A DNA stretch of 64,000 bases. Source: Lysobacter helvus. Lineage in GTDB: Bacteria; Pseudomonadota; Gammaproteobacteria; Xanthomonadales; Xanthomonadaceae. The notes below the pieces were generated by a model, which saw only the letters and a program-made list of their open reading frames with translations, searched no databases and was not told where the DNA came from. The DNA lies in the NCBI RefSeq assembly GCF_018406645.1, contig NZ_AP024546.1, positions 992,001-1,056,000 on the forward strand, read 5' to 3'. The translations under genes were made by a program, and so were the position numbers. Below are positions 9,632 through 21,375 of this stretch, in pieces (the stretch's first letter is position 1; each line of letters opens with the position of its first letter).

Positions 9632-11277
9632 TGCAGCGGCGCACGTTCCTGATCGGCGCGGGGAACGCGTGCCTGCTCGGGGCGGCGGGATTCACTGCGT
9701 CGCGGTTGCATCGCGCGGTGGAGACCACGCCGGAGATCGCGTATCCGGGCATGCGCGAAGGCCATGCGCTGCGCGACGGCAAGGCATTGCCACCGCCGCG
9801 CGGCGAGCAGCGCGTCGGCGTTGCGATCCTGGGCTCCGGCGTGGCTGGCATGGCCTGCGCGTGGGCGCTGGCGCGCGCAGGACGCCGCGACTTCGTGGTG
9901 TTGCAGGGACCGGAATACGGCGGCAACGCCACCGCGGCCAACCTGGCGGCGCCCGGCGACGACGTGCTGGCGTGTCCATTGGGCGCGCATTACCTGCCGC
10001 TGCCTTCGACCGAATCCACGCACGTCCGCAGCCTGCTGGCCGATGTCGGATTGTTGCTGGACGGCGAACACGACCCTGCGTCGTATTACGACGAAGCCGC
10101 GTTGCTGCATGCCCCGAAGGAACGGCTGCTGCGCGCGGGGCGGTGGGAAAGCGACCTGCTTCCGAGCCAGGGCCTGCCGCCGGAAGCGCTGCAACAGCAA
10201 CGGCGTTTCTTCGCGGAAGTGGCGGCACTGCGCGTGCAGCGTGGGCGCGATGGTCGGCGCCTGTTCGCCATTCCCATCGCGCTTTCGTCCGCGGAAGCGG
10301 AATGGCGCGCGCTGGATCGGGAAACGTTCGCGCACTGGCTGGATCGTCGTGGTTACACCGCGCCCAGCCTGCGCTGGTACCTGGATTACTGTTGCCGCGA
10401 CGACTACGGCGCTTCCACGCACACCGTCTCCGCGTGGGCCGGGCTGCACTACTTCGCCAGCCGCGACGGCAAGGCGGCGAATGCGGCGGGGGATGCGGTC
10501 CTCACCTGGCCCGGTGGGTTGTCGGAACTCATCGCGCGCATGCGCGCGGCGACGACGCGGCGCCTGGGGCACGAACGCTGGTTGCAGCCGGGCTTCGCGG
10601 CGCGCGTTGCGGACCGTGCCGGCGGCGTCGACATCGTGCGAGTGCGCCACGACGGTGGCGCGCTCGCCACCGACACGATCCGCGCGCGCCACGCCGTCAG
10701 CGCGATGCCCTTGCACGTGCTGGCGCGGATCTGGCCCGGGCTCGCGGGCAGCGGCTACGACGCCGCCACGCACGCCAGTCCGCACGCTGCGTGGCTGGTG
10801 TCCAACTTCCTCGTCGACGGCTATGCGCGCGAGCTGCCCGGGGAAGCGCTGGCGTGGGACAACGTCGTTTACGGGGGGCGCGGCCTGGGCTACGTCGTGT
10901 CGACGCACCAGATGCTGCGCGTGGCGCCGACGGCGCGCACGGTGTTGTCGGCGTATCAATCGCTGGATCGGATGTCGCCGCAGCAAGCGCGCGCGTGGCT
11001 GATGCGCGCGACGCCGGAAGCACTGCGCGAGGAAGCCGCAAGCGATCTGTTGCAGGCGTACGGCGACCAGCTATGGCGTCGTACGAAACGGTTGTCGATC
11101 ACGGTGCGCGGGCATGCGATGGCGGTGCCTGCGCCGGGTTACCTGGATAACGCAGGGTTGGCCGCGTTGCGCGCGATGGACGGGCCGGTGCGGATCGCGC
11201 ATGCCGACCTGTCCGGCTATTCGATTTTCGAAGAAGCCGCGTGGTGGGGCGTGCGGGCGGCGGAAGGGCTCGCCTAG
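9631..11277 (+). CDS. Tat-exported FAD-dependent oxidoreductase (flavin amine oxidase-like)
   Basis: A 548-residue flavoenzyme. The N-terminus has a twin-arginine signal (QRRTFLIGAG, residues 2-11) followed by a hydrophobic stretch. A Rossmann motif with GSGVAG is at 68-73, and a second FAD/substrate segment precedes the C-terminus (DLSGYSIFEEAAWWG). The fold resembles flavin-containing amine oxidases and phytoene-desaturase relatives. Exported after folding, it would act in the periplasm. Coupled to a spermidine-synthase-like protein (TGATG overlap), it is a good candidate for a polyamine or amino-group oxidase, but the residues that define that specificity cannot be judged by eye. An NADPH-linked reductase or a desaturase remains possible. 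Confidence 0.85.
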   Translation: MQRRTFLIGAGNACLLGAAGFTASRLHRAVETTPEIAYPGMREGHALRDGKALPPPRGEQRVGVAILGSGVAGMACAWALARAGRRDFVVLQGPEYGGNATAANLAAPGDDVLACPLGAHYLPLPSTESTHVRSLLADVGLLLDGEHDPASYYDEAALLHAPKERLLRAGRWESDLLPSQGLPPEALQQQRRFFAEVAALRVQRGRDGRRLFAIPIALSSAEAEWRALDRETFAHWLDRRGYTAPSLRWYLDYCCRDDYGASTHTVSAWAGLHYFASRDGKAANAAGDAVLTWPGGLSELIARMRAATTRRLGHERWLQPGFAARVADRAGGVDIVRVRHDGGALATDTIRARHAVSAMPLHVLARIWPGLAGSGYDAATHASPHAAWLVSNFLVDGYARELPGEALAWDNVVYGGRGLGYVVSTHQMLRVAPTARTVLSAYQSLDRMSPQQARAWLMRATPEALREEAASDLLQAYGDQLWRRTKRLSITVRGHAMAVPAPGYLDNAGLAALRAMDGPVRIAHADLSGYSIFEEAAWWGVRAAEGLA

Positions 11278-11291
11278 GCGGGCCCATCGCG

Positions 11292-11873
11292 TCAGCGGTG
11301 CGCGTTCCACCAAGCGAGTGCGGCGACGTTGGCAACGACGGTGATCCAGAACACGGCCTGGAACGACGCCTTGCTGCGCTTGTGCCGGAACAGGTCCTGC
11401 GCGACGAGCGCGCCCGGCCAGCCGCCGGTGAGCGCGAGGAAGTGCAGCGTGGATTCCGGCGTGCGCCAGGCATCGCGCTGCGCGCGGGACTTGTCGGCGG
11501 CATAGACGAGCACAGCGACGAGGCTCATGCCGCCGTACACCATCAGCACGGTCGGCGGCATTTTCTGCTGCCAGACGGCGAGTGCGAAGAAGGCCAGCGC
11601 GGCGAGGCCGATCCATTTGCGCGGGAGTCGCGAGGGCGTCGCCTCGGAACGCGCCTTGCTCGGCGCGGCATTCGCGACACGCACGTCGATCGCGTTCAAG
11701 CGCTGGCGATCATCGCGCTGCACCGTGTACGTCACGCGCGTGCCTTCCGCCGGTCGACGACCCCGCGGGAATGCCCGGATATGCACGAAGGCGCGATCCC
11801 CGCCGCCATTCGGTTCGATGAACCCGAAACCCCGCGCGTCCTGCCATTCGACGACCCGTCCTGCCAAGCGCAT
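11292..11873 (-). CDS. cold-shock domain fused to DUF1294 membrane domain
   Basis: A 193-residue protein. Residues 1-65 are a cold-shock (OB-fold) domain with RNP-type motifs (RGFGFIE and DRAFVHIRAF), which binds single-stranded nucleic acid. A polar linker (65-85) is followed by a C-terminal DUF1294 domain with three to four membrane spans, including a Gly-rich segment (TGGWPGALVAQDLFRHK). The fusion is a recognised proteobacterial architecture that tethers an RNA/DNA-binding domain to the inner membrane. The start at 11873 begins exactly at the cold-shock domain. It ends 14 bp from the end of the FAD gene (convergent) and lies 11 bp after a small conserved gene on the same strand, with which it may be co-transcribed. 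Confidence 0.9.
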   Translation of the reverse strand: MRLAGRVVEWQDARGFGFIEPNGGGDRAFVHIRAFPRGRRPAEGTRVTYTVQRDDRQRLNAIDVRVANAAPSKARSEATPSRLPRKWIGLAALAFFALAVWQQKMPPTVLMVYGGMSLVAVLVYAADKSRAQRDAWRTPESTLHFLALTGGWPGALVAQDLFRHKRSKASFQAVFWITVVANVAALAWWNAHR

Positions 11874-11884
11874 GCAGCGTGTCC

Positions 11885-12202
11885 TCAGGCTTCGCCGTCG
11901 TCCGTATTCGCGTCCGCGAACAGCATCGCGAACTCGTCCGCCGTCAGCGTGATGCCGACGTCCTGCGCGAGCGCGCTGTTGCGCTCCCACACCTCGCGGA
12001 TCGCATCGCCGATGCCTTCGCCCCATTGCATCTGCGCCGCGACGATCTCCTGCCAGGTGCCCTGGTGGTCGAGGGATTCGGCGAGCTGCGGCGCCATCTT
12101 TTCGAGCGCCTCGCGCTGCACGGGATCGAGTGCGTCGATGGCATCGAGCGCCAGGCACTCGATGAGGCGAAGGAAGGGGCGGCCGGTGTAGCGGTCTTCC
12201 AT
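11885..12202 (-). CDS. conserved small protein (starts GRPFLRLIEC; family function unknown)
   Basis: A 105-residue cytoplasmic protein, mostly alpha-helical and acidic. The N-terminal motif (TGRPFLRLIECLALDAID), the central helix with LEKMAPQLAE and the ending LTADEFAMLFAD match a small proteobacterial family I know only as conserved hypothetical. The start at 12202 (GGAG nine bases upstream) fits the family. An in-frame ATG at 12319 with AGGGG upstream would add 39 polar residues and is less likely, though it has its own ribosome site. The gene diverges from the RHS operon across a 264-bp gap with a palindrome. No enzyme signature is visible. Confidence 0.78.
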   Translation of the reverse strand: MEDRYTGRPFLRLIECLALDAIDALDPVQREALEKMAPQLAESLDHQGTWQEIVAAQMQWGEGIGDAIREVWERNSALAQDVGITLTADEFAMLFADANTDDGEA

Positions 12203-12341
12203 GGGGCGCGTCTCCGCGGGTGCCGTCGGGGTGGGCGGGAGTTTACGCCGCCAGGACGACACATGGTCGGAAGACGCGACCTCATCCTTCGATCGCAGGA
12301 CCTGCTTCGCGTCGGTCATGCGTATTCCCCTGCCGCGCTGG

Positions 12342-12359
12342 ATTCGAATTCGTTCGAAT
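12342..12359. promoter_or_regulatory. perfect inverted repeat between divergent genes (candidate operator)
   Basis: ATTCGAA and TTCGAAT face each other across a TTCG spacer in the gap between the small conserved gene and the first RHS gene. The 7-bp arms match perfectly and the site is AT-richer than its surroundings. It lies 108 bp before the RHS start, a position suited to a repressor operator or a short RNA stem. No terminator T-run follows it. The regulator is unknown. Confidence 0.45.
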
Positions 12360-12466
12360 TTGGCGATGCTTCCAACTTCCATCTGCGGCCACGTCGTTCC
12401 AGCCTCGAAAAACGCCCACGCGCGACTTGTCGCGCCAGGGCACTTCAAGGGAAGGGAGCACGACGA

Positions 12467-14560
12467 ATGCACAGATCGATGCGGGCAACGCTGCTCGCAA
12501 TGTCCGTGGGATTGGCGGCGCCAGCGGTCGGCGCAATCGAATCCACGGCCGTGGACGAGTACACCAGGCGCCTCAAGGTCCACCAGACGATCCAACCGAT
12601 CGGCGAGGCGCCTTTCGGCGAATCGATCAACCTCTACACGGGCGAGATCAGCTTTGCCAACGAGGACATCGTGCTCGAGGGCCTGGGGCCGACGATCACG
12701 ATCACGCGTCAATACCAGCGTCAGGACACGCACGAGCAGGTGCCGTTCGGCCTGCAGCGCGGCTTCAGCGACTGGGTGCTCGCAATCCCGCACATGGCGA
12801 CGCTGACGCCGGGCAACAGCAAGTTGGGTGGCGTCGTCGGTACGTGGCGCGTCGAAGGCCCCGATGGCCTCCCCACGGACCAGCGCTGCTCGCAGTTCTC
12901 TTCGATATGGTCGCCGCCCGGCGGGCTCGCTCCGAAGTACGGCGAAGTCGAACTCGATACCTGGTGGCACGGCTACCAGCTCGTCGTGCCCGGCGCGGGC
13001 AGGCAGGACGTGCTGCTGCGCAATCCTTCCAACACGCGCAAGCCCGCAACGGGCCTCTATCCAGGCGTGACGGCTGGCAACTGGCAAATCGGTTGCCTGC
13101 CATCCACGCGCAACGGACACGCGGGGGAAGGATTCCTTGTGCTGTCGCCCGATGGCCTGCGGTACCACCTCGACCATCTCGCGTATTCGGCCTACAGCAC
13201 GATGAACGCGATAGTCGACGGATCGGGCGACAAGCCGATCATGTACTACCTCACGCGCAAGCTTGCGCGCATGTATGCGAGCCGCGTGGAGGATCGCTTC
13301 GGCAACGCGATCACCTACCACTACTCGGGCGATCGGCTCACCGATATCACCGCCACCGATGGTCGTCGCGTTGCGATCGACTGGGATGCGACGGAGCCGT
13401 TGGTCACTGCGATCCGCACGATGCCCGGCACAGGGAGCGAACGCACGTGGCGCTACGAATACGCAGGTCAACGCCTCGCGAAAGCGATCCGACCGGATGG
13501 TTCCGCCTGGACATATGCCATGGGCGGCATCGCGCCGGAAATCCTGCCACTGCGCCTCGATGGATGCTTTACGGCAGGCGGCCCACCGCACGTATCGGGC
13601 GCCTCCTCCCCGCCGGGCCATGTGGATGCGTCGGCCACCGTCACCCATCCCTCGGGCCTGGTCGGGCAGTTCCGGGTTGCGTGGCGGTTGCGTGCGCAAA
13701 CGTCCGCGCTGAGCTGGTGCACGGGCCTCGGTGAAGTATTCGAAAACGGCAACCCGTACTTCCTGTCGATGGCGTTGGTCGACAAGACCTTTTCCGGTCC
13801 GGGCGTCTCGCCGATGACGTGGCGTTACAGCTACGAACCCCCCGCCGCGAGCGTCGATCGCTACTGCCCGACGGTGGCCTCGTGCAAGAACACCACGTCC
13901 GTCGACATCACCGATCCGGCCGGGGTGCTCACGCGTTACACCTACAGCACGCGCTTCGACGCGACCGAAGGCGAACTGCTGCGCGTCGACCACGGCCTGG
14001 CGAATGGGGTGGCGCAGCGCACCGAACTTCGCGAATACCACTTGCCCGCTGGCCCGCGCCCGTATCCGTCGCCGAACGGCAACGCCATGACCTCCGGCAA
14101 CAGCTACAAGTCGGAGAACGCGGTGCCCGTGCGTTCGACGGTCGTGCACCAACAGGGGGCGACGTTCACGCGCGAAGTGCTGGCGTTCGATGCGTACCTG
14201 TATCCGACGCAGGTCAGCGAGCGCGCGGCCGAACCCGCGACGCCTCCCCCGCCTCCGCCTCCGCCACCGCCTCCGCCGCCACCGCCGGCGGTGCCCGGAG
14301 TGCCCGTGTTGACCGTCACGCCGGAGTACATGGCCGGTTCGCCGATCACGACGTACTTCAGCCAGTGGTCTGCCATGCCGGGCGCGGCCCGATACGACCT
14401 GCAGGGCAAGAACATCGCCTTGTCCGGTGAGCCCGCCACGCTCTACAGCAGCAGCGGCACCGACTTCGAATACGCACGCCGCGGCACGTGGCAGTTCCAG
14501 GTGCGCGCGTGCAACACCAGTGGCACCTGCAGCGCGTGGTCCGCGCCGGTGACGCCATGA
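12467..14560 (+). CDS. secreted RHS-family N-terminal partner protein with polyproline and Fn3-like end
   Basis: A 697-residue protein with a signal peptide (residues 1-24, cleavage after VGA). Residues 30-130 show the DUF6531-like start of RHS proteins (INLYTGEISFANEDI, then a beta strand with ITITRQYQRQ). Residues 260-560 carry YD/RHS-type repeats (NAITYHYSGDRLTDITATDG, RRVAIDWDA, LTRYTYSTRFD). A run of 15 prolines (593-607; DNA 14243-14287) forms a rigid hinge, then about 90 residues have a fibronectin-type look (AMPGAARYDLQ, then CNTSGTCSAWS). Cysteines suggest disulphides. It lacks the RHS core ending, which the coupled next gene supplies (4-bp ATGA overlap). So it looks like one half of a two-piece secreted RHS shell. 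AGGGAG lies upstream of the start. Confidence 0.85.
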   Translation: MHRSMRATLLAMSVGLAAPAVGAIESTAVDEYTRRLKVHQTIQPIGEAPFGESINLYTGEISFANEDIVLEGLGPTITITRQYQRQDTHEQVPFGLQRGFSDWVLAIPHMATLTPGNSKLGGVVGTWRVEGPDGLPTDQRCSQFSSIWSPPGGLAPKYGEVELDTWWHGYQLVVPGAGRQDVLLRNPSNTRKPATGLYPGVTAGNWQIGCLPSTRNGHAGEGFLVLSPDGLRYHLDHLAYSAYSTMNAIVDGSGDKPIMYYLTRKLARMYASRVEDRFGNAITYHYSGDRLTDITATDGRRVAIDWDATEPLVTAIRTMPGTGSERTWRYEYAGQRLAKAIRPDGSAWTYAMGGIAPEILPLRLDGCFTAGGPPHVSGASSPPGHVDASATVTHPSGLVGQFRVAWRLRAQTSALSWCTGLGEVFENGNPYFLSMALVDKTFSGPGVSPMTWRYSYEPPAASVDRYCPTVASCKNTTSVDITDPAGVLTRYTYSTRFDATEGELLRVDHGLANGVAQRTELREYHLPAGPRPYPSPNGNAMTSGNSYKSENAVPVRSTVVHQQGATFTREVLAFDAYLYPTQVSERAAEPATPPPPPPPPPPPPPPPAVPGVPVLTVTPEYMAGSPITTYFSQWSAMPGAARYDLQGKNIALSGEPATLYSSSGTDFEYARRGTWQFQVRACNTSGTCSAWSAPVTP

Positions 14561-17500
14561 GGAGCAACGCATTGATCAACGTCACCAGCGGGCGCCTGCG
14601 CCTGGCAGTCTTCGGCGCCCTCGCGCTGGCATGCGCACCCGCGGGGGCGCAGTGGGCCACCGTTCGCGAGCGCGTGCAGCAGACCACGTACGAACACAAC
14701 ACCAGTGCGTGGGTGCTGGGCCAGGTCCGCATGCGCAGCACGCACGACCCGGTGACGGGCGGTGTCTTCGGGATTGCGCGCACGGACTACGAGCCGACCA
14801 CCGCGTTGCCCGTGCGCGTGTACAACAACGTGCATCTGCAGGAAACGCGCACCTACAACGCCGATGGCACGCCGTCCACGATTTCCGACGGGCGCGACAG
14901 CGCCGGGTTCGACACCACCACCGCGTATGCCGACTGGAAACGCGGCGTGCCGCAGCGCATCACGTTCGCCGACGGCACCTCGCGCCTCGCGACGGTCGAC
15001 GACGCGGGCCTGATCCGCACGGTCACCGACGAGACCGGCGCGAAGACCTGCTACGACTACGACGCGATGGGCCGCGTCAGCCGGATCACGCATCCCTCGG
15101 AGACACAGCCCGGCACCTGCGACACCAGCGCCTGGCACGCCACCACGGTCACGTTCGCGCCCGCGGGGCAGGCGCTCTTCGGCATCGGCGCCGACCACTG
15201 GATGCGCACGGAAGACACGGGCGGCCATCGGAAGGTCACGCATTACGACGCATTGCTTCGGCCCATCGTGGTCGAAGACATCGACGTCGATGCCATGGCG
15301 GACACGCACCGCTGGACCGCGATGCGTTACGACGCGGCGGGTCGCCAGGTCTTCGCGTCCTACCCGCGCAACCTGTTCCAGACCGGCTGGGTGGATTGGG
15401 ACACCGTGACCGGGGGAACGCGCACGACGTACGACGCGATCGGCCGCGTCACGCGCGTCGAGCAGGACTCGGAACTCGGCGTGCTCGCCACGACGACGGA
15501 GCACCTCGACGGATTCCAGACGCGTGTCACGGCGCCGCGCGGGACGCAGACGCTCACCCGCTACATCGCGTGGGACCAGCCGACCACCGACCTGCCGGGC
15601 CTCATCACGCAAGCCGGCCAGGTCACCGAGATCCGGCGCGATGCCGTCGGCAAACCGATGCGCATCACGCGCCGCGATGCGTCGGGCGCGCTATCGGTCG
15701 ACCGCACCTTCGTTTACGACGGCGAAGGCCGCCTGTGCCGCACGAGCGAACCGGAAACAGGCAATACCGTCACGGGCTACGACGTGATGGGCAACCTCGC
15801 CTGGCAAGCGACCGGGGTGACGCTGCAAGCCAACGATTGCGACCACGTGGTGGCGTACTACCAGGGCCGGACCACGACGCGCGAGTACGACACGCGCGGA
15901 CGCCTGCGCGCGGTGGCGCTCCCCGATGGCCGCGGCAACCAGGCGTGGTCGTACTGGCCCGATGGCCAGCCGCACCGCGTGACCACGTACAACGCGACCG
16001 GCAACGGCGCGCCGGTCGTCAACACGTACGCGCACAGCGCGCGTCGGCTGCTGACGGCAGAGACGCTCGAACACGATGACGGCACCCGCTGGACGCAAAG
16101 TTATGGGTACGACCGCCATGGCCACCTCGCTGCGCTGACCACGCCGAAGGGCACGGCCCTGCAGTACGCGCCGAATGCGTTGGGCCAGCCCACGCAGGTC
16201 CGCGATACCGATGGTGCGACGTATGCGTCCGATCTTGCGTACTACCCCAACGGCACGCTCCGCGCCTTCCGCTACGGCAACGGCATCGTGCACGCGATGA
16301 CGCAGAACGCCCGCCAGTTCCCGGCGCGCGTGACGCACGGCGGCGGCGCGATGGACTACGCCTACACCTACGACGCGCATGCCAACCCGACGCACATCGT
16401 CGACCACGTCCGCGGCAGCACCTTCGACCGCACGTTGGCGTACGACAGCCTGGACCGCCTGACCGAGGCCACGTCCTGCAGCTTCGGTGGCGACTGCAAG
16501 CATCGCTTCGCCTACGACGTCCTGGACAACCTCAAGTCGTGGACGCTCGCAGGCGTCAAGGACTACGCCCACTACCACTACGACCCCGGCACCAACCGCC
16601 TGGCGAACGTGCAGAACAGCGCCGGTGCCAGCGTGGTGGGGCTGGGGTACGACGCGCAAGGCAACCTGACCAACAAGAACGGACAGTTGTACGCGTTCGA
16701 CTACGGAAACCGGCTGCGGTCGGTGCACGGCAAGGAAGCCTACCGATACGACGCGCACGGGCGCCGGACGCAGGCCGATCGCGCGGCGCACGGGCGCAGC
16801 GTGTTCTCCATGTACACGCAGGACGGCCAGCTCGCGCACCAGCGCGATGACATCAGGGGCGAGGATCGCGATTACGTGCACCTGGCCGGCAGCCTGCTGG
16901 CCACGGTGGCGCATCGGCACAGCGATGGCGCTGTGACCACGACGTTCCAGCACACGGACGCGCTGGGCAGCCCGGTGGCGATCAGCGATGCAGCGGGCAA
17001 CGTGATCGAGCGGTTGGCGTATGAGCCGTTCGGTGCGGTGATCGGGAAGCCGGGGCATGACGGCGTCGGGTTTGCCGGCCACGTGATGGATGGCGGAACT
17101 GGGTTGGTGCAGATGCAGCAGCGGTCGCAGGACAAAGAACTCGGTAGGTTCCTAACAGGTGACGAGGCGTCCGTTGACTTCGTCACGGGTTCGAACTTCA
17201 ACCGCTACAGCTACGCGAACAACAACCCATATCGTTTTGCAGATCCGGATGGGCGATTTGCCATCCAAATTGTTGGGGGCATAGCGGGTGCACTGATTGG
17301 AGGAGGTGGCTCCTACCTGAGCGGGAACTCCACAAAAACGGTAATCCGGGACACTTTGATTGGATTCGGTGTCGGCACCCTGTCGACGATTCCGGGAGGA
17401 GGCGCCTTAGCAGTGGGAATTCGAAGTGGGTTGGCTTCTGCGGCAGGCGATGCGTCAAGCCAGGCGCTAGAGAACGGAGTCAAGAACATCGATAGCGCAA

Positions 17501-17763
17501 GGACATTAAAGGCCGGTGTTCTAGGCATGGCCGTGGGTGGCGCCGCAAAGGGAGTGGCTGATCGAATGGTGCCGAACAAGAACATTCCCGGCCTACCCCA
17601 GTCCCATCCGCTCGTCAGAGAAGGTCGTGCCATTGCACAGTCCGGCTCCGAAACAAGAGCCGGCCCGATTCGCAACGCGACGGAAGTCGCGACAGCTGGG
17701 GGCACAGGCGCCGCGGTGACCGGAGCGCAGATTCTTGTGCAGGACAGGAAGGAGCAGAAATGA
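14557..17763 (+). CDS. secreted RHS-repeat protein with core and variable AT-rich C-terminal tip
   Basis: A 1068-residue protein with its own signal peptide (cleavage after AGA, about residue 31). It is followed by some 20 YD-type repeats (YDAMGRVSRITHP, YDAAGRQVFASY, YDAIGRVTRV and so on) that build a beta-cage. An RHS-core ending occurs near 840-900 (HTDALGSPVAISDAAG, ERLAYEPFGAVIG, YSYANNNPYRFADPDGR). After DPDGR (residue 900) the variable tip begins: 168 residues with a glycine-zipper stretch and no toxin fold I can name. The core is unusual in having MQQRSQDKELGRF where RYYDP is normal. The signal peptide argues for periplasmic or extracellular deployment rather than T6SS delivery. The stop overlaps the start of a two-span membrane gene by 4 bp. 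Confidence 0.87.
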   Translation: MRSNALINVTSGRLRLAVFGALALACAPAGAQWATVRERVQQTTYEHNTSAWVLGQVRMRSTHDPVTGGVFGIARTDYEPTTALPVRVYNNVHLQETRTYNADGTPSTISDGRDSAGFDTTTAYADWKRGVPQRITFADGTSRLATVDDAGLIRTVTDETGAKTCYDYDAMGRVSRITHPSETQPGTCDTSAWHATTVTFAPAGQALFGIGADHWMRTEDTGGHRKVTHYDALLRPIVVEDIDVDAMADTHRWTAMRYDAAGRQVFASYPRNLFQTGWVDWDTVTGGTRTTYDAIGRVTRVEQDSELGVLATTTEHLDGFQTRVTAPRGTQTLTRYIAWDQPTTDLPGLITQAGQVTEIRRDAVGKPMRITRRDASGALSVDRTFVYDGEGRLCRTSEPETGNTVTGYDVMGNLAWQATGVTLQANDCDHVVAYYQGRTTTREYDTRGRLRAVALPDGRGNQAWSYWPDGQPHRVTTYNATGNGAPVVNTYAHSARRLLTAETLEHDDGTRWTQSYGYDRHGHLAALTTPKGTALQYAPNALGQPTQVRDTDGATYASDLAYYPNGTLRAFRYGNGIVHAMTQNARQFPARVTHGGGAMDYAYTYDAHANPTHIVDHVRGSTFDRTLAYDSLDRLTEATSCSFGGDCKHRFAYDVLDNLKSWTLAGVKDYAHYHYDPGTNRLANVQNSAGASVVGLGYDAQGNLTNKNGQLYAFDYGNRLRSVHGKEAYRYDAHGRRTQADRAAHGRSVFSMYTQDGQLAHQRDDIRGEDRDYVHLAGSLLATVAHRHSDGAVTTTFQHTDALGSPVAISDAAGNVIERLAYEPFGAVIGKPGHDGVGFAGHVMDGGTGLVQMQQRSQDKELGRFLTGDEASVDFVTGSNFNRYSYANNNPYRFADPDGRFAIQIVGGIAGALIGGGGSYLSGNSTKTVIRDTLIGFGVGTLSTIPGGGALAVGIRSGLASAAGDASSQALENGVKNIDSARTLKAGVLGMAVGGAAKGVADRMVPNKNIPGLPQSHPLVREGRAIAQSGSETRAGPIRNATEVATAGGTGAAVTGAQILVQDRKEQK
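17257..17760 (+). other. variable C-terminal tip of the RHS protein (candidate toxin module)
   Basis: Everything after the DPDGR border encodes 168 residues. The first 100 are small-residue and hydrophobic, with glycine-zipper runs (GGIAGALIGGGGSY, GFGVGTLSTIPGGG, GMAVGGAAKG). The last 68 are polar with a proline pair and a basic end (QDRKEQK). Base composition drops from the GC-rich cage to visibly AT-richer sequence over about 17140-17260, the usual mark of horizontally exchanged RHS tips. I recognise no nuclease, deaminase or ADP-ribosyltransferase motif. A membrane-active (pore-forming) toxin, or a tip that lost its effector domain, both fit. Confidence 0.6.
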
Positions 17764-18065
17764 AGCAATTCATCCAAAGCCTTCAGCGGGAGAATCCCTG
17801 GGAACTCCATGGATTCGTTTTCTCCATTGCTGCCGGAATCTCCTTCGCCAGTCTCAGCTATGCTTTCGTTGCGCTCATGGAATACCCGGACGACGTTCCG
17901 TTGCGCGATGTCCTGGCTCCGGTAGACGCCGTAGTGTTTTTTCTGGCGCTTGCCATGTGCGCCTTCATTTCGTACGTAGGATCGATGCTCGCATCCGTTC
18001 TGGTGTTGCGAATGAAGCGAAGCATTCTTGTAAAGGTGAAGTCCGCAACAAATTGGTTTCCGTGA
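17760..18065 (+). CDS. two-span membrane protein, candidate immunity to the RHS tip
   Basis: A 101-residue protein overlapping the RHS stop by 4 bp (ATGA). It has two hydrophobic spans (about 18-40 and 58-82) with a short acidic loop (MEYPDDVPLRD) and a basic C-terminal tail (RMKRSILVKVK). Base composition is AT-rich like the tip. The immediate translational coupling is the classic position of an RHS immunity gene. Two membrane spans suit protection against a pore-forming or periplasmic toxin. This rests on position and topology; there is no recognised immunity family. The downstream region is gene-poor for 368 bp. Confidence 0.6.
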   Translation: MKQFIQSLQRENPWELHGFVFSIAAGISFASLSYAFVALMEYPDDVPLRDVLAPVDAVVFFLALAMCAFISYVGSMLASVLVLRMKRSILVKVKSATNWFP

Positions 18066-18433
18066 AAACAGCGGCAGCTTCCACGCTCATTCTGGTCAAT
18101 GTCCAGACAATTTCTACGTTCGTGAATGCAGCCCGAGGGCAGACCGATTCCCTTGCGGGTCTACGGCGACGGCGCCGATCTGCATCCGGGCAGCAACCGA
18201 TTCTCAAGCTGCGCCTCGCTCCCTACTCATGAAGTGAGGTGCTTTACGCCGACTGGGCTCGTATTCGATGTGCTTTCGCAACCGTCGAGTGCCATCCCGA
18301 CGGCTTTGTCTTCGATCAATTCGTGAGCCTCGCAGGGACAAGCACCCGCCGCCACTTCTGCGAAATACAACAATGCACTTGGGGACAAGGCTGGCGCCAT
18401 CGTTCCGCCTGATCGCTGCTGATCGGAGTCGCT
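18066..18433 (+). other. 368-bp gap with degenerate coding remnant
   Basis: This stretch holds no convincing gene. It is AT-richer than the chromosome and contains repeat copy A (18231-18329). A 66-codon frame (18126-18326) crosses that repeat but is not conserved in frame with copy B, which differs by 4 bp. The most economical reading is debris of an earlier RHS tip or immunity cassette. A GGAG lies just before the start of the next gene at 18434. Confidence 0.45.
18231..18329. repeat. degenerate repeat, copy A (about 100 bp)
   Basis: Copy A aligns with copy B at 18852-18954. Both begin GAAG(T/C)GAGGTGC and end ACGGCTTTGT(C/T)TTCGAT(C/T)(A/G)ATTCGTGAGCC. Copy A is 4 bp shorter in the middle, so a peptide frame readable through copy B (GWVLDRLANEF, then CPPDGFVFD, then stop) is broken in A. 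The two copies lie on either side of the DUF6572-like gene (18434-18790). Confidence 0.65.
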
Positions 18434-18790
18434 ATGAAAGTGAACGACTACTTCGAATTTGATGACGAGCACCCGATTCCAAACCTGGACGTCGTTGACA
18501 TCAACACAGTCAAGACGAACGGCGGATCCGATCTTTTCGTTATTGTTGCGACGCCACTCGCGGATGATCCTCGATCACTGAAGCGCTTGCTACGCAAGAT
18601 TGAGCGCTATCTGGAGTTTTTGAACTCCGAAGAATTCTTGGCGCAGAGTGGCCCCCCCACAACAGCAAATACCAACATCATTGTGAAACTGCATCCAGAG
18701 TCCAGCAGAGCTGCATTCGAGCTCGTTGAAAGAAGCCGCGAGCGGGTCATCAGCAACAATGCAAACTTGGTGATTGACATGCAGGTTTGA
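18434..18790 (+). CDS. DUF6572-like protein, candidate immunity protein
   Basis: A 118-residue soluble acidic protein. The pattern (a short N-terminus, then DVVDINTVKTNGG, a beta strand with LFVIVATPLADD, a Leu/Lys-rich helix, a strand with NIIVKLHPE and a C-terminal helix) resembles DUF6572, a small family often found in polymorphic toxin immunity regions. The match is by shape and is not proven. GGAG precedes the ATG. The gene is AT-rich, sits between repeat copies A and B and has no toxin partner next to it, so it may be an orphan immunity gene retained after a toxin module was lost. Confidence 0.62.
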   Translation: MKVNDYFEFDDEHPIPNLDVVDINTVKTNGGSDLFVIVATPLADDPRSLKRLLRKIERYLEFLNSEEFLAQSGPPTTANTNIIVKLHPESSRAAFELVERSRERVISNNANLVIDMQV

Positions 18791-18851
18791 GCTGAACGTC
18801 GTGAACCCGGCGCTCCGGTGCGCAAAAGAAAATCGTATGCACACACCGCTC

Positions 18852-18954
18852 GAAGCGAGGTGCGTTGCGCCCTCGGGATGGGTACTCGATCGGCTGGCCA
18901 ACGAATTTGCCCCGTGCCCGCCGGACGGCTTTGTTTTCGATTGATTCGTGAGCC
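18852..18954. repeat. degenerate repeat, copy B (about 100 bp)
   Basis: The longer copy of the pair described at 18231-18329. A frame open from upstream runs through it to TGA at its end, giving peptides such as GWVLDRLANEF and CPPDGFVFD. On the opposite strand it gives HESIENKAV and GKFVGQPIEYPS, which also look like a small gene remnant, so the coding strand is unclear. It may be a fragment of a dispersed element or of an RHS C-terminus. Confidence 0.65.
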
Positions 18955-19010
18955 GAAGAAATAGACTCTGTCGTTGCAGCCCAACAATCTCTCAATTCGT
19001 AAGCCCCGAT

Positions 19011-19379
19011 ATGTCTTTCGGTGAACTAGCTGCACTTATCTCCATCGGCTATGTCTGCGGAGTGTCCGTTATTGGCGGATTCGTCCTGTCTGCGGTGAGC
19101 CAGTTCTACGTGGCAGGCAAACACCGAGTTCGTGAAGTCCTTTGGATCGGGGCCATGATTGTCACCATCTCCACGACTACGTTGGCGCCTGTTTTTGCCA
19201 TGGGAATTCTAGTGTTCGGCGACGATCCGAATGGCCCTGGGTTCTATCCTCGAATGGTTACGTTCGTCGCCGCGCTTCTCGCCGGCTTCGGTTTTGCGTT
19301 CGGAGCCGCGGTTCTCTACAACAAAGCGATTCGCTCATACCAGCCTCAGTCGAAGGTCGCAAAAAGCAACGACCCTTGA
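19011..19379 (+). CDS. three-span membrane protein in the RHS cassette region
   Basis: A 122-residue protein with three hydrophobic spans (about 6-30, 44-70 and 82-105), short loops and a Lys/Ser-rich tail. A GTG-initiated frame opens 63 bp upstream, but the ATG at 19011 begins the first span and is the natural start. The gene is AT-rich compared with flanking chromosome and has no recognised family. Size, topology and place in a run of small genes downstream of an RHS tip make it a second candidate membrane immunity protein. Its relation to the 101-residue protein at 17760 is unclear: both are small membrane proteins but their sequences differ. Confidence 0.6.
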   Translation: MSFGELAALISIGYVCGVSVIGGFVLSAVSQFYVAGKHRVREVLWIGAMIVTISTTTLAPVFAMGILVFGDDPNGPGFYPRMVTFVAALLAGFGFAFGAAVLYNKAIRSYQPQSKVAKSNDP

Positions 19380-19443
19380 GCGTTTTGGCCTATGTGGCGA
19401 GCTCTTTGCAGTGAACTAGGCAACACGCGAGTTGGAATCGAAC

Positions 19444-19911
19444 ATGGAAATGCTGACCTATCCCCACGCTGGAAAAGTTCTTTCGAAACTGCTCGTTGGC
19501 TCGCAGCTTGACTCGATTCGCGTGTACAGCCTGCTGGTTGAGCTCTCATTCTTCCGCCCCGACGAGCCGCCGGCCGGTACTCCCAAGATGATCTGGGTTG
19601 TCGCTTCTGGCGAGATCGAAGTGTCATGTGCAATGCCGGATAGCCCTGTGGATTTCTTCGAACGCAGATCCAGAGCAATCGCAAGTCTCTATAACTGCAT
19701 GGGTCAGTTCGTAGAGGCCGTGCGACCTGAAGAGCACAAGCTCTCTATTTCCGTTGGCGCCGTATCAATCACGCTGTCGCCTGACAACAAGGACGTCGAT
19801 GCTGAGTTCTGGGCGCTCATGGACGACTCTCCAGACGTGACTTCCAATCATGAGTGGCTGATTGCAGGACTGTCTTCGGGCATTACGCTGATCGAGCCCA
19901 GGACACTATGA
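19444..19911 (+). CDS. small soluble protein in the RHS cassette region
   Basis: A 155-residue acidic protein of mixed alpha/beta character. Beta-like segments include SIRVYSLLVELSFF, KMIWVVASGEIEVS and KLSISVGAVSITLS; an Asp-rich stretch (DNKDVDAEFWALMDD) precedes the end. The start is ATG 19444; a TTG 12 bp upstream is less likely. I do not recognise the family. It lies last in the AT-rich run and converges on nrdJb (stop 38 bp away). The pattern is that of many small immunity proteins, but that is inference from place and size. The end of the gene marks the return to normal chromosome. Confidence 0.55.
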   Translation: MEMLTYPHAGKVLSKLLVGSQLDSIRVYSLLVELSFFRPDEPPAGTPKMIWVVASGEIEVSCAMPDSPVDFFERRSRAIASLYNCMGQFVEAVRPEEHKLSISVGAVSITLSPDNKDVDAEFWALMDDSPDVTSNHEWLIAGLSSGITLIEPRTL

Positions 19912-19948
19912 AAGGACACGTCTGCTTTGCGTCACCGATTCCATGGGC

Positions 19949-20728
19949 TTATCCGCACTTGCTATACCCACAATTCAAGCAAGTAGCACACCCATCCATG
20001 ATCACCACGGCTTTCGTCGAGCACTTGTGGCACATCGTCGCGCTAGGCGGAAAACTCGCGCCATCGCCGGTCACTTCGATCACTTCTTCCGTACGCGCAT
20101 CGGCCCCGTTGGCGGCGCCGAAGCTCACGTCACTGTTTTTTTTTGAGCGCTGCTCGTACGCCGCACGCTTCTCTGCAATCAACGCCCGCTGCGCCGGCGA
20201 CATGTCGGGATCGTGGATCAGCCCGATCGACTTCATGTGGTCTTCGACGATCGCGCCCAGCTCGGCCACCAGGCTCGGCATGTACACGCCGCCCGCCTTG
20301 AAGTAACCGCCGCGGGGATCGAACACGGCCTTCATTTCTTCGACCAGGAACGTCACGTCGCCGCCCTTGCGGAACACGGCGGACATGATGCGCGTCAGCG
20401 CGACGATCCACTGGAAGTGCTCCATCGACTTGGAGTTGATGAAGATCTCGAACGGGCGACGCAGTTCGTGCTCGGTGCCGGCGTTGAGCACGATGTCGTT
20501 GAGGGTCACGTACATCGCGTGCTCGACGAGCGGCGACTTGATCTTGTACGTCGAACCGATGAGGACCTCGGGACGCTCGATGCGCTCGTGCATCTGGATG
20601 ACGTCGGCGGTCGGCAGTTCGGCTTCCAGCGTCGCGCGTGCGACGGCTTCGGCTTTCGCTTCGCGTGCCTTGTCTTCCGGAGTGACGACGGCGTAGCCCT
20701 TGATCTTCTTGTCGATTTTGACGGCCAT
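19949..20728 (-). CDS. nrdJb: class II ribonucleotide reductase, NrdJb subunit
   Basis: A 259-residue partner of the class II (adenosylcobalamin-dependent) ribonucleotide reductase, carried on a separate gene as in pseudomonads. The C-terminus has the expected cysteine array: C233/C236, C247/C250, C253 and C258 (ending GYSKCG). The first four can form a zinc ribbon. The last pair matches the redox-active thiols that pass electrons from thioredoxin to the active site. The N-terminal 180 residues supply a structured domain (VDVRKG-like segment FRKGGDVTFLVEEM). Residues 195-215 are a flexible linker encoded by a run of nine A on the coding strand (20136-20144). It is separated from nrdJa by a histone-like gene and a hairpin. 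Confidence 0.88.
   Translation of the reverse strand: MAVKIDKKIKGYAVVTPEDKAREAKAEAVARATLEAELPTADVIQMHERIERPEVLIGSTYKIKSPLVEHAMYVTLNDIVLNAGTEHELRRPFEIFINSKSMEHFQWIVALTRIMSAVFRKGGDVTFLVEEMKAVFDPRGGYFKAGGVYMPSLVAELGAIVEDHMKSIGLIHDPDMSPAQRALIAEKRAAYEQRSKKNSDVSFGAANGADARTEEVIEVTGDGASFPPSATMCHKCSTKAVVIMDGCATCLNCGYSKCG
20136..20144 (-). other. A9 run in nrdJb (possible slippery site)
   Basis: Nine consecutive A on the coding strand encode Ser-Lys-Lys-Asn (UCA AAA AAA AAC), a heptamer of the A AAA AAC type. In a GC-rich gene such a run is unusual. A -1 slip there would end translation four to five codons later at TGA, removing the cysteine-rich end. There is no obvious stimulatory structure. It could equally be a mutational hotspot. 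Confidence 0.4.
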
Positions 20729-20754
20729 GGGAATTCTCTAAGGTGTGTCGAAAT

Positions 20755-20780
20755 CCCCTCCCGCGTTTTCGCGGGAGGGG
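20755..20780 (-). terminator. hairpin between the histone-like gene and nrdJb
   Basis: An 11-bp perfect stem (CCCCTCCCGCG with its complement) closes a TTTT loop. On the minus strand the histone-like gene ends 10 bp before it. The following bases (ATTTCG) give only a short U-run, so it may be an attenuator or partial terminator that lowers nrdJb expression rather than a full stop. Confidence 0.65.
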
Positions 20781-20789
20781 TGGTGTTGC

Positions 20790-21338
20790 TTACTTCGCCG
20801 CCTTGCGGGCGGTCTTGCGGGCGCCGGTCTTGCGCGCCGTGGTCTTGCGACCGGTCTTCTTGGCAGCGCGCTTCACGGCCGTCTTCTTGGCGGCGACCTT
20901 GCGGCCCACCTTCTTGACGGCGCGCTTCACGGCGGTCTTCTTGGCGGCGACCTTGCGGCCGACCTTCTTGACCGTGCGCTTCGTCGCGGCCTTCTTCGCG
21001 GCGACCTTGCGGCCGGCCTTCTTGACCGTGCGCTTGGCGGCAGCCTTCTTGCCGGCGACCTTCTTGGTGGCTTTCTTGCCCGCGCGCTTGGCGGCGGCCT
21101 TCTTGCCGGCCACCTTGCGCTTCAGGGTTGCGGCTTCCTTCTTGGCGGCGGCGGAAGCGGAAGCGAGCTTCTTCTTCGCGGTGCCCACTGCCTTCTTCGC
21201 AGCCTTGGTCGCTTTCTTCGCGGTCTTCTTCGCGCCGGTGACTGCCTTGCCCGCGCGCTTGGCGACGGACTTGGCGGTCTCGACCACGGTGTCGGCGGCG
21301 TTGGAGAGGGTCGCGGTGACCCCGTTGCCATTGCTCAT
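20790..21338 (-). CDS. histone H1-like lysine-rich DNA-binding protein
   Basis: A 182-residue protein composed almost wholly of Lys, Ala, Arg, Val and Thr. After about 25 ordinary residues the chain is an H1-type tail with KKA and KR repeats. From residue 102 to 165 there are three and a half copies of an 18-residue unit (KRTVKKVGRKVAAKKTAV type). Such proteins (AlgP, HctB or H1-like) bind DNA non-specifically and can act as nucleoid regulators. GAGGAA precedes the ATG at 21338, and a good promoter (21376-21403) lies just upstream. Position between nrdJa and nrdJb is unusual; the 61-bp gap to nrdJb contains a hairpin. Repeat number can change by slippage, so length may vary between strains. 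Confidence 0.85.
   Translation of the reverse strand: MSNGNGVTATLSNAADTVVETAKSVAKRAGKAVTGAKKTAKKATKAAKKAVGTAKKKLASASAAAKKEAATLKRKVAGKKAAAKRAGKKATKKVAGKKAAAKRTVKKAGRKVAAKKAATKRTVKKVGRKVAAKKTAVKRAVKKVGRKVAAKKTAVKRAAKKTGRKTTARKTGARKTARKAAK
20844..21035 (-). repeat. tandem 54-bp repeats inside the histone-like gene
   Basis: Three and a half copies of a 54-bp unit encode the 18-residue repeat (residues 102-165). Copies differ at a few bases. The repeats are coding, so this is not a CRISPR or satellite array. Unequal recombination or slippage could add or remove 18-residue units. Confidence 0.75.
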
Positions 21339-21375
21339 TTTGATTCCTCGTTGGGATGGCCTGTGGAACAACGCG

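What the first reader, a model, noticed from the sequence alone, without database searches (positions are those of the whole stretch)
17760..19911. Run of four small AT-rich genes after the RHS tip
Downstream are a two-span protein (coupled by ATGA), a DUF6572-like protein, a three-span membrane protein and a soluble acidic protein, all AT-richer than the chromosome. They look like a bank of immunity genes, or orphans left from previous tips, and would protect against rival toxins as well as the local one.
Basis: partly seen in the sequence, partly recalled or inferred. Interest (0 to 1): 0.7.

Follow-up and report, generated by a model that had tools for sequence, protein, structure and literature searches.

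The report
Orphan immunity genes behind RHS toxin
Behind one secreted bacterial toxin gene lie its own antidote gene and three spare antidote genes whose matching toxins appear to be gone, one of them leaving only a 30-codon stump, which looks like a record of past weapon swaps kept as protection against rivals.

Summary
Each has at least one relative directly behind an RHS toxin tip in another genome. g1 follows a homologue of the local tip (G004), so tip plus g1 is the resident pair. g2 (DUF6572-like) relatives follow one tip type in three family genomes and one MAG. g4 relatives follow another tip type in six family genomes (broken copies in two) and on four Leptospira plasmids. g3 rests on one genome. 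The strongest new fact: 30 codons before g2 (18330-18422) are the C-terminal stump of the g2-type toxin. It is the only match to that toxin in the 3.27-Mb genome (E<=0.1), whereas two of four congeners keep the whole tip domain. So g2 is an orphan; g4 probably, g3 possibly. A ~100-nt repeat lies in the gaps behind g1 and g2; its first copy ends within a codon of where the stump begins. Toxin fossils before g4 relatives in two other genomes show that the process recurs. This matches known sequential displacement (Vibrio T6SS arrays, Serratia Rhs), here at a split RHS locus with signal-like N-termini in a genome without a detectable T6SS sheath gene. Protection is inferred, not tested.

The parts
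12467..14560 (+). RHS part 1 (697 aa, signal-like N-terminus by eye, DUF6531); coupled by ATGA to part 2
   Evidence: Pfam DUF6531 24.8 bits (cut-off 24.1)
14557..17763 (+). RHS part 2 carrying the resident tip; signal-like N-terminus by eye
   Evidence: Pfam RHS_repeat 80.4 bits, NCBIfam Rhs_assc_core 4.3e-16
17227..17763 (+). End of the RHS core and resident tip (Gly-rich, no known toxin domain found)
   Evidence: 57% identical to G004:C21:30108-30629, which is followed by a g1 relative
17760..18065 (+). g1: two-span membrane protein, immunity gene of the resident tip
   Evidence: ATGA coupling; relative directly behind the homologous tip in G004, E 2.2e-12
18231..18329 (+). R1: first copy of a ~100-nt repeat, in the gap behind g1; ends within a codon of the start of the toxin stump
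   Evidence: alignment score 82 against a maximum of 34 in 200 shuffles
18330..18422 (+). C-terminal stump (30 codons and stop) of the g2-type toxin tip
   Evidence: tblastn against the three gaps only: E 4e-8, 1e-7 and 4e-4 with tips of L139, L140, L138; tip profile iE 2.9e-5; the only match in the own genome, E 0.0012, 18327-18419; letters
18434..18790 (+). g2: DUF6572-like orphan immunity gene
18852..18954 (+). R2: second copy of the repeat, in the gap behind g2
   Evidence: no third copy stands out in the own genome
19011..19379 (+). g3: three-span membrane protein, possible orphan immunity gene (GTG at 18948 is an alternative start)
   Evidence: relative 50 nt behind a full RHS gene in G329; alignment A3
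19444..19911 (+). g4: acidic soluble protein, orphan immunity gene
   Evidence: relatives behind one tip type in 6 family genomes (2 of them with broken tips) and on 4 Leptospira plasmids

Best explanation
This is the 3' end of a polymorphic RHS toxin locus. The resident tip and g1 form the current toxin-immunity pair; g2, g3 and g4 are immunity genes left from older tip-immunity modules whose toxins were displaced. Shown by sequence: each gene has a relative directly behind an RHS tip elsewhere, and a toxin stump precedes g2. Inferred: (1) incoming modules joined by homology in the RHS core and by illegitimate breakpoints on the right, cutting off the old toxin but sparing its immunity gene; (2) each immunity protein binds its toxin, or, for the membrane proteins g1 and g3, acts at the membrane against Gly-rich tips; (3) the orphans are kept because kin or neighbours still carry those toxins, as two congeners carry the g2-type tip. 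Whether the array formed here or arrived ready-made with the island is open.
For: g1: its one confident relative outside the own genome (335 genomes with the own) lies directly behind a homologue of the resident tip. g2: of 8 loci in 6 other genomes at E<1e-5, 4 loci in 3 genomes (G001 twice as a tandem, G002, G123) have the g2-type tip upstream; a MAG locus adds a fourth genome (L170). By eye, no shared further small gene follows g2 in those four, so g2 is the immunity candidate there. The stump; sole match in the own genome, with the whole tip domain in 2 of 4 congeners. g4: 3 of 5 confident and 3 of 10 weak hits have the g4-type tip or its pieces immediately upstream; so do 4 of 4 Leptospira plasmid stretches read, of 6 records matched. 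Recurrence: L151 keeps only about the last 42 codons of the g4-type toxin, and L155 has it in three frame-broken pieces, both with an open g4 relative. g3: relative behind RHS in G329. Control: of 42 weak-hit loci that were laid (for g3 only the best 13 weak hits), 39 show no RHS core or tip 1, 2 or 4 within 1.5 kb; the 3 that do are g4 relatives with the matching tip.
Against: g3 rests on one RHS-linked relative of 6 confident hits; 4 of the other 5 have no RHS core match in 13 kb and one lies at a contig end. Of the 8 g2 loci, 4 have no tip nearby, and 3 of the 6 loci have none in reach. Of the 5 confident g4 loci, 2 have no tip within 1.5 kb. The g2-type tips in G001 and G002 sit on short ORFs (248 and 235 aa), so it is not shown that those congeners deliver them. 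No convincing toxin stump was found before g3 or g4. In Streptococcus suis the DUF6572 domain is an export adaptor that does not neutralise the toxin (PMC12558993, passages). No promoter-like or terminator-like site was found in 17700-20000, where shuffles gave means of 1.1 and 2.2, so expression of g2-g4 is unproved.
Confidence: 0.85

Rival explanations
1. The array did not build up at this site. It arrived ready-made, together with the whole RHS island, from a donor in which the displacements had happened. The genes would still be orphan immunity genes, but not a record of this lineage's own weapon swaps.
For: In 4 of 4 congeners the right flank is conserved up to 19946-19953 (84-88% identity), but no RHS core or tip 1, 2 or 4 match lies in the 16-kb stretches beside it and other genes stand there. 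So the RHS region looks like an insertion of this lineage. The left flank was matched in only 2 of the 4.
Against: The two copies of R, the G+C drop confined to tip and array and the stump fit stepwise stacking, though stacking could have happened in the donor.
Confidence: 0.45
2. g2, and perhaps others, are adaptor or chaperone genes for toxin export rather than immunity genes.
For: DUF6572 as the C-terminal part of S. suis type VII immunity proteins binds the EssC ATPase and is dispensable for neutralisation (PMC12558993, passages).
Against: g2 consists of the DUF6572-like domain alone (residues 15-115 of 118); by eye no other shared small gene follows it behind four tips, so no other immunity candidate is apparent there; it is kept without its toxin, which an adaptor would not need.
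Confidence: 0.1
3. The four genes are unrelated AT-rich foreign genes that collected beside the RHS gene by chance.
For: Low G+C; 4 of 8 g2 loci and 5 of 6 g3 loci show no RHS neighbour.
Against: All four have a relative directly behind an RHS tip, and 9 of 20 confident loci have an RHS core or tip upstream against 3 of 42 weak-hit loci, those 3 being g4 relatives with the matching tip; a toxin stump precedes g2.
Confidence: 0.03

Closest known systems
Orphan immunity gene arrays of Vibrio cholerae T6SS clusters (Kirchberger 2017, PMC5361080; abstract, passages and section 13 seen)
   Same: One active effector-immunity pair followed by several immunity genes of displaced effectors; the model includes a shifted-back 3' end of an old effector.
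   Different: T6SS effectors there; here a split RHS with signal-like N-termini in a genome without a detectable T6SS sheath gene, unrelated small families, and a repeat at the junction.
Serratia marcescens Rhs1 locus with orphan immunity genes (PMC10539506; passages seen)
   Same: Genes behind an Rhs toxin-immunity pair are orphan immunity genes; one was shown to protect against another strain's Rhs tip.
   Different: T6SS-delivered Rhs, tested at the bench; no toxin stump in the passages seen.
Stenotrophomonas rhizophila T6SS effector loci (PMC13340143; passages seen)
   Same: Same bacterial family; a paar5-tde5 locus with its immunity gene and four additional immunity copies, and the same displacement idea in its discussion.
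   Different: Additional copies of one immunity family behind a PAAR-fused DNase; here unrelated immunity families behind an RHS tip.
rhs C-terminal displacement in Enterobacteriaceae (Jackson 2009, PMC2935791; passages seen)
   Same: Old tips are pushed downstream by new tips.
   Different: There the dissociated tips keep core fragments; here core and toxin are gone, except 30 codons.
DUF6572 / EIC-CR domain of type VII immunity proteins in Streptococcus suis (PMC12558993; passages seen)
   Same: Same domain family name, next to polymorphic toxins.
   Different: There a C-terminal adaptor domain; here the whole 118-aa protein, below the Pfam cut-off, behind RHS tips.

Membership tests
Orphan immunity gene array by effector displacement | Effector-immunity pair at the 5' end of the array | tested here: met
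   Resident tip and g1 occur together in G004 as well; activity itself untested
Orphan immunity gene array by effector displacement | Each further gene resembles a gene directly behind a different effector elsewhere | tested here: met
   g2: 4 genomes; g4: 6 family genomes (2 with broken tips) and 4 Leptospira plasmids; g3: 1 genome only
Orphan immunity gene array by effector displacement | Matching effectors absent from the genome | tested here: inconclusive
   g2-type: only the stump in G000, with positives in G001 and G002. g4-type: none in 5 genomes, but no positive control in that search. g3-type: own genome not searched
Orphan immunity gene array by effector displacement | Remnant of a displaced effector before its immunity gene | tested here: met
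   Before g2; none convincing before g3 and g4
Orphan immunity gene array by effector displacement | Orphans protect against the matching toxins | not testable with these tools
   Needs bench tests
T6SS-associated Rhs | T6SS sheath gene in the genome | tested here: not met
   No VipB (PF05943) match at E<=0.001 in G000; the same search matched 1 of 14 control genomes, Escherichia coli
DUF6572 (PF20212), gene g2 | Score above the gathering cut-off | tested here: not met
   24.5 bits against 27, E 3.4e-5
Recombinase-associated AID arrays of Bacteroidales (recalled; passages name mobile arrays in Bacteroidales) | Recombinase gene in the array | not tested
   None apparent by eye among the ORFs; no profile search was made for one

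The most novel reading that the evidence does not exclude
The ~100-nt repeat R is the conserved 3' boundary of RHS tip-immunity modules in some donor lineage and a preferred breakpoint: R1 ends within a codon of where homology to the old toxin begins, and copies lie in the gaps behind g1 and g2. Modules would then stack in an integron-like order, newest first, without an integrase, keeping each old immunity gene.
Probability: 0.1. Interest if true: 0.65.

Novelty: new member of a known kind. Interest (0 to 1): 0.48.

Why it matters
It gives a readable case of weapon turnover: a resident toxin pair, spare antidotes, and a stump that names one lost weapon, whose tip domain two congeners still carry. 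It also points to toxin-immunity families without a Pfam or NCBIfam match above cut-off in the members scanned here (g1, g3, g4, and the toxin parts of the g2-type and g4-type tips). The g4 type spans Xanthomonadaceae and Leptospira plasmids. It makes 'do orphan immunity genes protect against kin?' directly testable outside T6SS.

Tried and rejected
R as a structured RNA: folding z-scores -1.52 and +0.66 for stretches spanning R1 and R2, and no Rfam match in 17700-20000 up to E 1. R as a wider repeat: no third copy stands out in the own genome (next E 0.165); 13 of the other 79 genomes have short matches to the gap-2 query at E<=0.05 (best 0.004, 21-46 nt, some inside R), which I take as chance. 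Toxin stumps before g3 and g4: none convincing. Known toxin domain in the linked tips: none above cut-off in Pfam or NCBIfam, a sub-threshold Ntox10 hit in L150 lying in its N-terminal part, and no PDB relative of the g2-type tip, g2 or g4 (ubiquitin hits at E 0.36 and above taken as chance). By eye the g2-type tip shows an RPD...EV pattern that recalls PD-(D/E)xK nucleases from memory; no call supports it. Plasmid searches with g2, g3, the g2-type tip and the tip-g1 DNA found nothing. The automatic 'upstream' tally printed ignored minus-strand loci; the counts in this report were taken from the coordinates listed there.
Full report
Observation. The window lies at 992001-1056000 of a 3.27-Mb single-contig genome. 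Two other genomes can be named because a contig of the same length is named: G001 (same genus) is Lysobacter lactosilyticus A6 and G123 (same family) is Luteimonas endophytica. The window is thus from a Lysobacter relative, family Xanthomonadaceae by inference. The locus holds RHS part 1 (12467-14560) and part 2 (14557-17763), coupled by ATGA, both with signal-like N-termini by eye, then g1 by ATGA, g2, g3 and g4. G+C falls from 0.68 in the core to 0.50-0.55 in the four genes.

Guilt by position. Each gene was searched in 335 family genomes, the own included, and 20 stretches of 6-17 kb were fetched. Six-frame profile searches and inspection of the upstream frames gave these results. g1: G004 has a 57% identical tip with a g1 relative (36%) directly behind it. 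g2: relatives whose homology starts 12-21 nt behind one tip type, stop codon counted, in G001 (with a second tandem copy), G002 and G123. A named-genome scan added a Gammaproteobacteria MAG, L170, with the same tip and gene; of its 6 loci, L169 and L171 are G001 and G123 again, and L172-L174 had no such tip in reach. g3: one relative 50 nt behind a full RHS gene in G329. g4: relatives directly behind one tip type in G076 and G268, behind remains of it in G158 and G130, and in two weaker hits, G093 and G149. Four Leptospira plasmids, of 6 matched, have the same tip type directly upstream of a g4 relative, one annotated as an RHS protein 11 nt upstream.

Control. Among 42 weak-hit loci laid (for g3 only the best 13 of its weak hits), 39 show no RHS core or tip 1, 2 or 4 within 1.5 kb; the other 3 are g4 relatives with the matching tip. 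Among the 20 confident loci (E<1e-5), 9 have a core or a tip upstream: g1 1 of 1, g2 4 of 8 (the tandem copy counted), g3 1 of 6, g4 3 of 5 (counted from its listed coordinates). The association is specific but far from universal, and g3 is the weakest.

The toxin stump. The gap before g2 ends with 30 codons (18330-18419, stop 18420-18422) that align with the last ~32 residues of the g2-type tips: tblastn against the three gaps only gives E 4e-8 (L139), 1e-7 (L140) and 4e-4 (L138); a tip profile gives iE 2.9e-5 among window 11001-21000 and 25 loci; and with L170 DNA identity is 32 of 38 nt. The frame is stopped directly upstream and has no ATG, GTG or TTG. The stump ends 15 nt before the g2 start by the measure that gives 12-21 nt for the intact pairs. 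Searched with the tip alignment in five genomes, the stump is the only match in the own genome (E 0.0012, 18327-18419), while G001 and G002 have the whole tip domain at E 8.6e-64 and 1.7e-50, on ORFs of 248 and 235 aa, and G003 and G004 have none. g2 keeps a coding pattern: against L170 it differs at 28, 17 and 70 first, second and third positions over 106 codons, though much of that divergence may predate the loss of the toxin.

The repeat. R1 (18231-18329) and R2 (18852-18954) align with score 82 against a maximum of 34 in 200 shuffles. They lie in the gaps behind g1 and g2, and R1 ends within a codon of where toxin homology starts, as far as local alignments resolve it. No third copy stands out in the own genome, nor a clear copy in 79 other genomes.

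Recurrence. In G158 (L151) about the last 42 codons of the g4-type toxin remain before an open g4 relative; in G130 (L155) the toxin is in three pieces in different frames before an open g4 relative. With the window's g2, loss of the toxin with retention of the immunity gene is thus seen three times in this small sample.

Setting. In four of four congeners the right flank is conserved up to 19946-19953, but the 16-kb stretches beside it hold no RHS core or tip 1, 2 or 4 match and other genes stand there. The left flank was matched in two of the four. So the RHS region looks like an island of this lineage. No T6SS sheath gene was found in the genome. How this RHS protein reaches other cells is unknown.

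Comparison with print. Kirchberger 2017 describes the same logic for Vibrio T6SS, Jackson 2009 tip displacement in rhs, and the Serratia work shows that an orphan Rhs immunity protein protects. In the same family, a Stenotrophomonas rhizophila T6SS locus has four additional immunity copies. DUF6572 occurs in two papers of the library, both on streptococcal type VII systems. Searches for RHS with orphans and immunity in Lysobacter or Xanthomonadaceae listed 3 and 1 papers; passages of three of these describe T6SS loci and no RHS orphan immunity array of this kind, and the fourth (PMC5130282) was seen only as a listing. This covers only the held library.

Judgement. Real, and explained by a known kind of process, with an unusually legible fossil. 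Function is inferred from position and homology.

Noticed in passing
18231-18329 and 18852-18954: Duplicated ~100-nt sequence in the gaps behind g1 and g2, with no clear copy found elsewhere; its origin is unexplained.
   Followed up: partly
L151:7268-7393 and L155:7432-7729: Two further toxin fossils directly before open g4 relatives in other genomes.
   Followed up: partly
L175-L178: Leptospira plasmids carry the g4-type RHS tip and immunity gene, linking two phyla.
   Followed up: partly
L138:8354-9097 and L139:7177-7881: The g2-type toxins of two congeners sit on short ORFs that by eye carry a signal-like start, a short end of the RHS core and the tip, a miniature RHS design.
   Followed up: no
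12467-17763: RHS protein split in two ATGA-coupled genes, each with a signal-like N-terminus, in a genome without a detectable T6SS sheath gene.
   Followed up: no
20790-21371 (-): Lysine- and alanine-rich, histone-H1-like repeat protein beside the locus; also present in congeners.
   Followed up: no
14243-14287: Run of 15 prolines in RHS part 1, before an end with a sub-threshold ChitinaseA_N hit.
   Followed up: no
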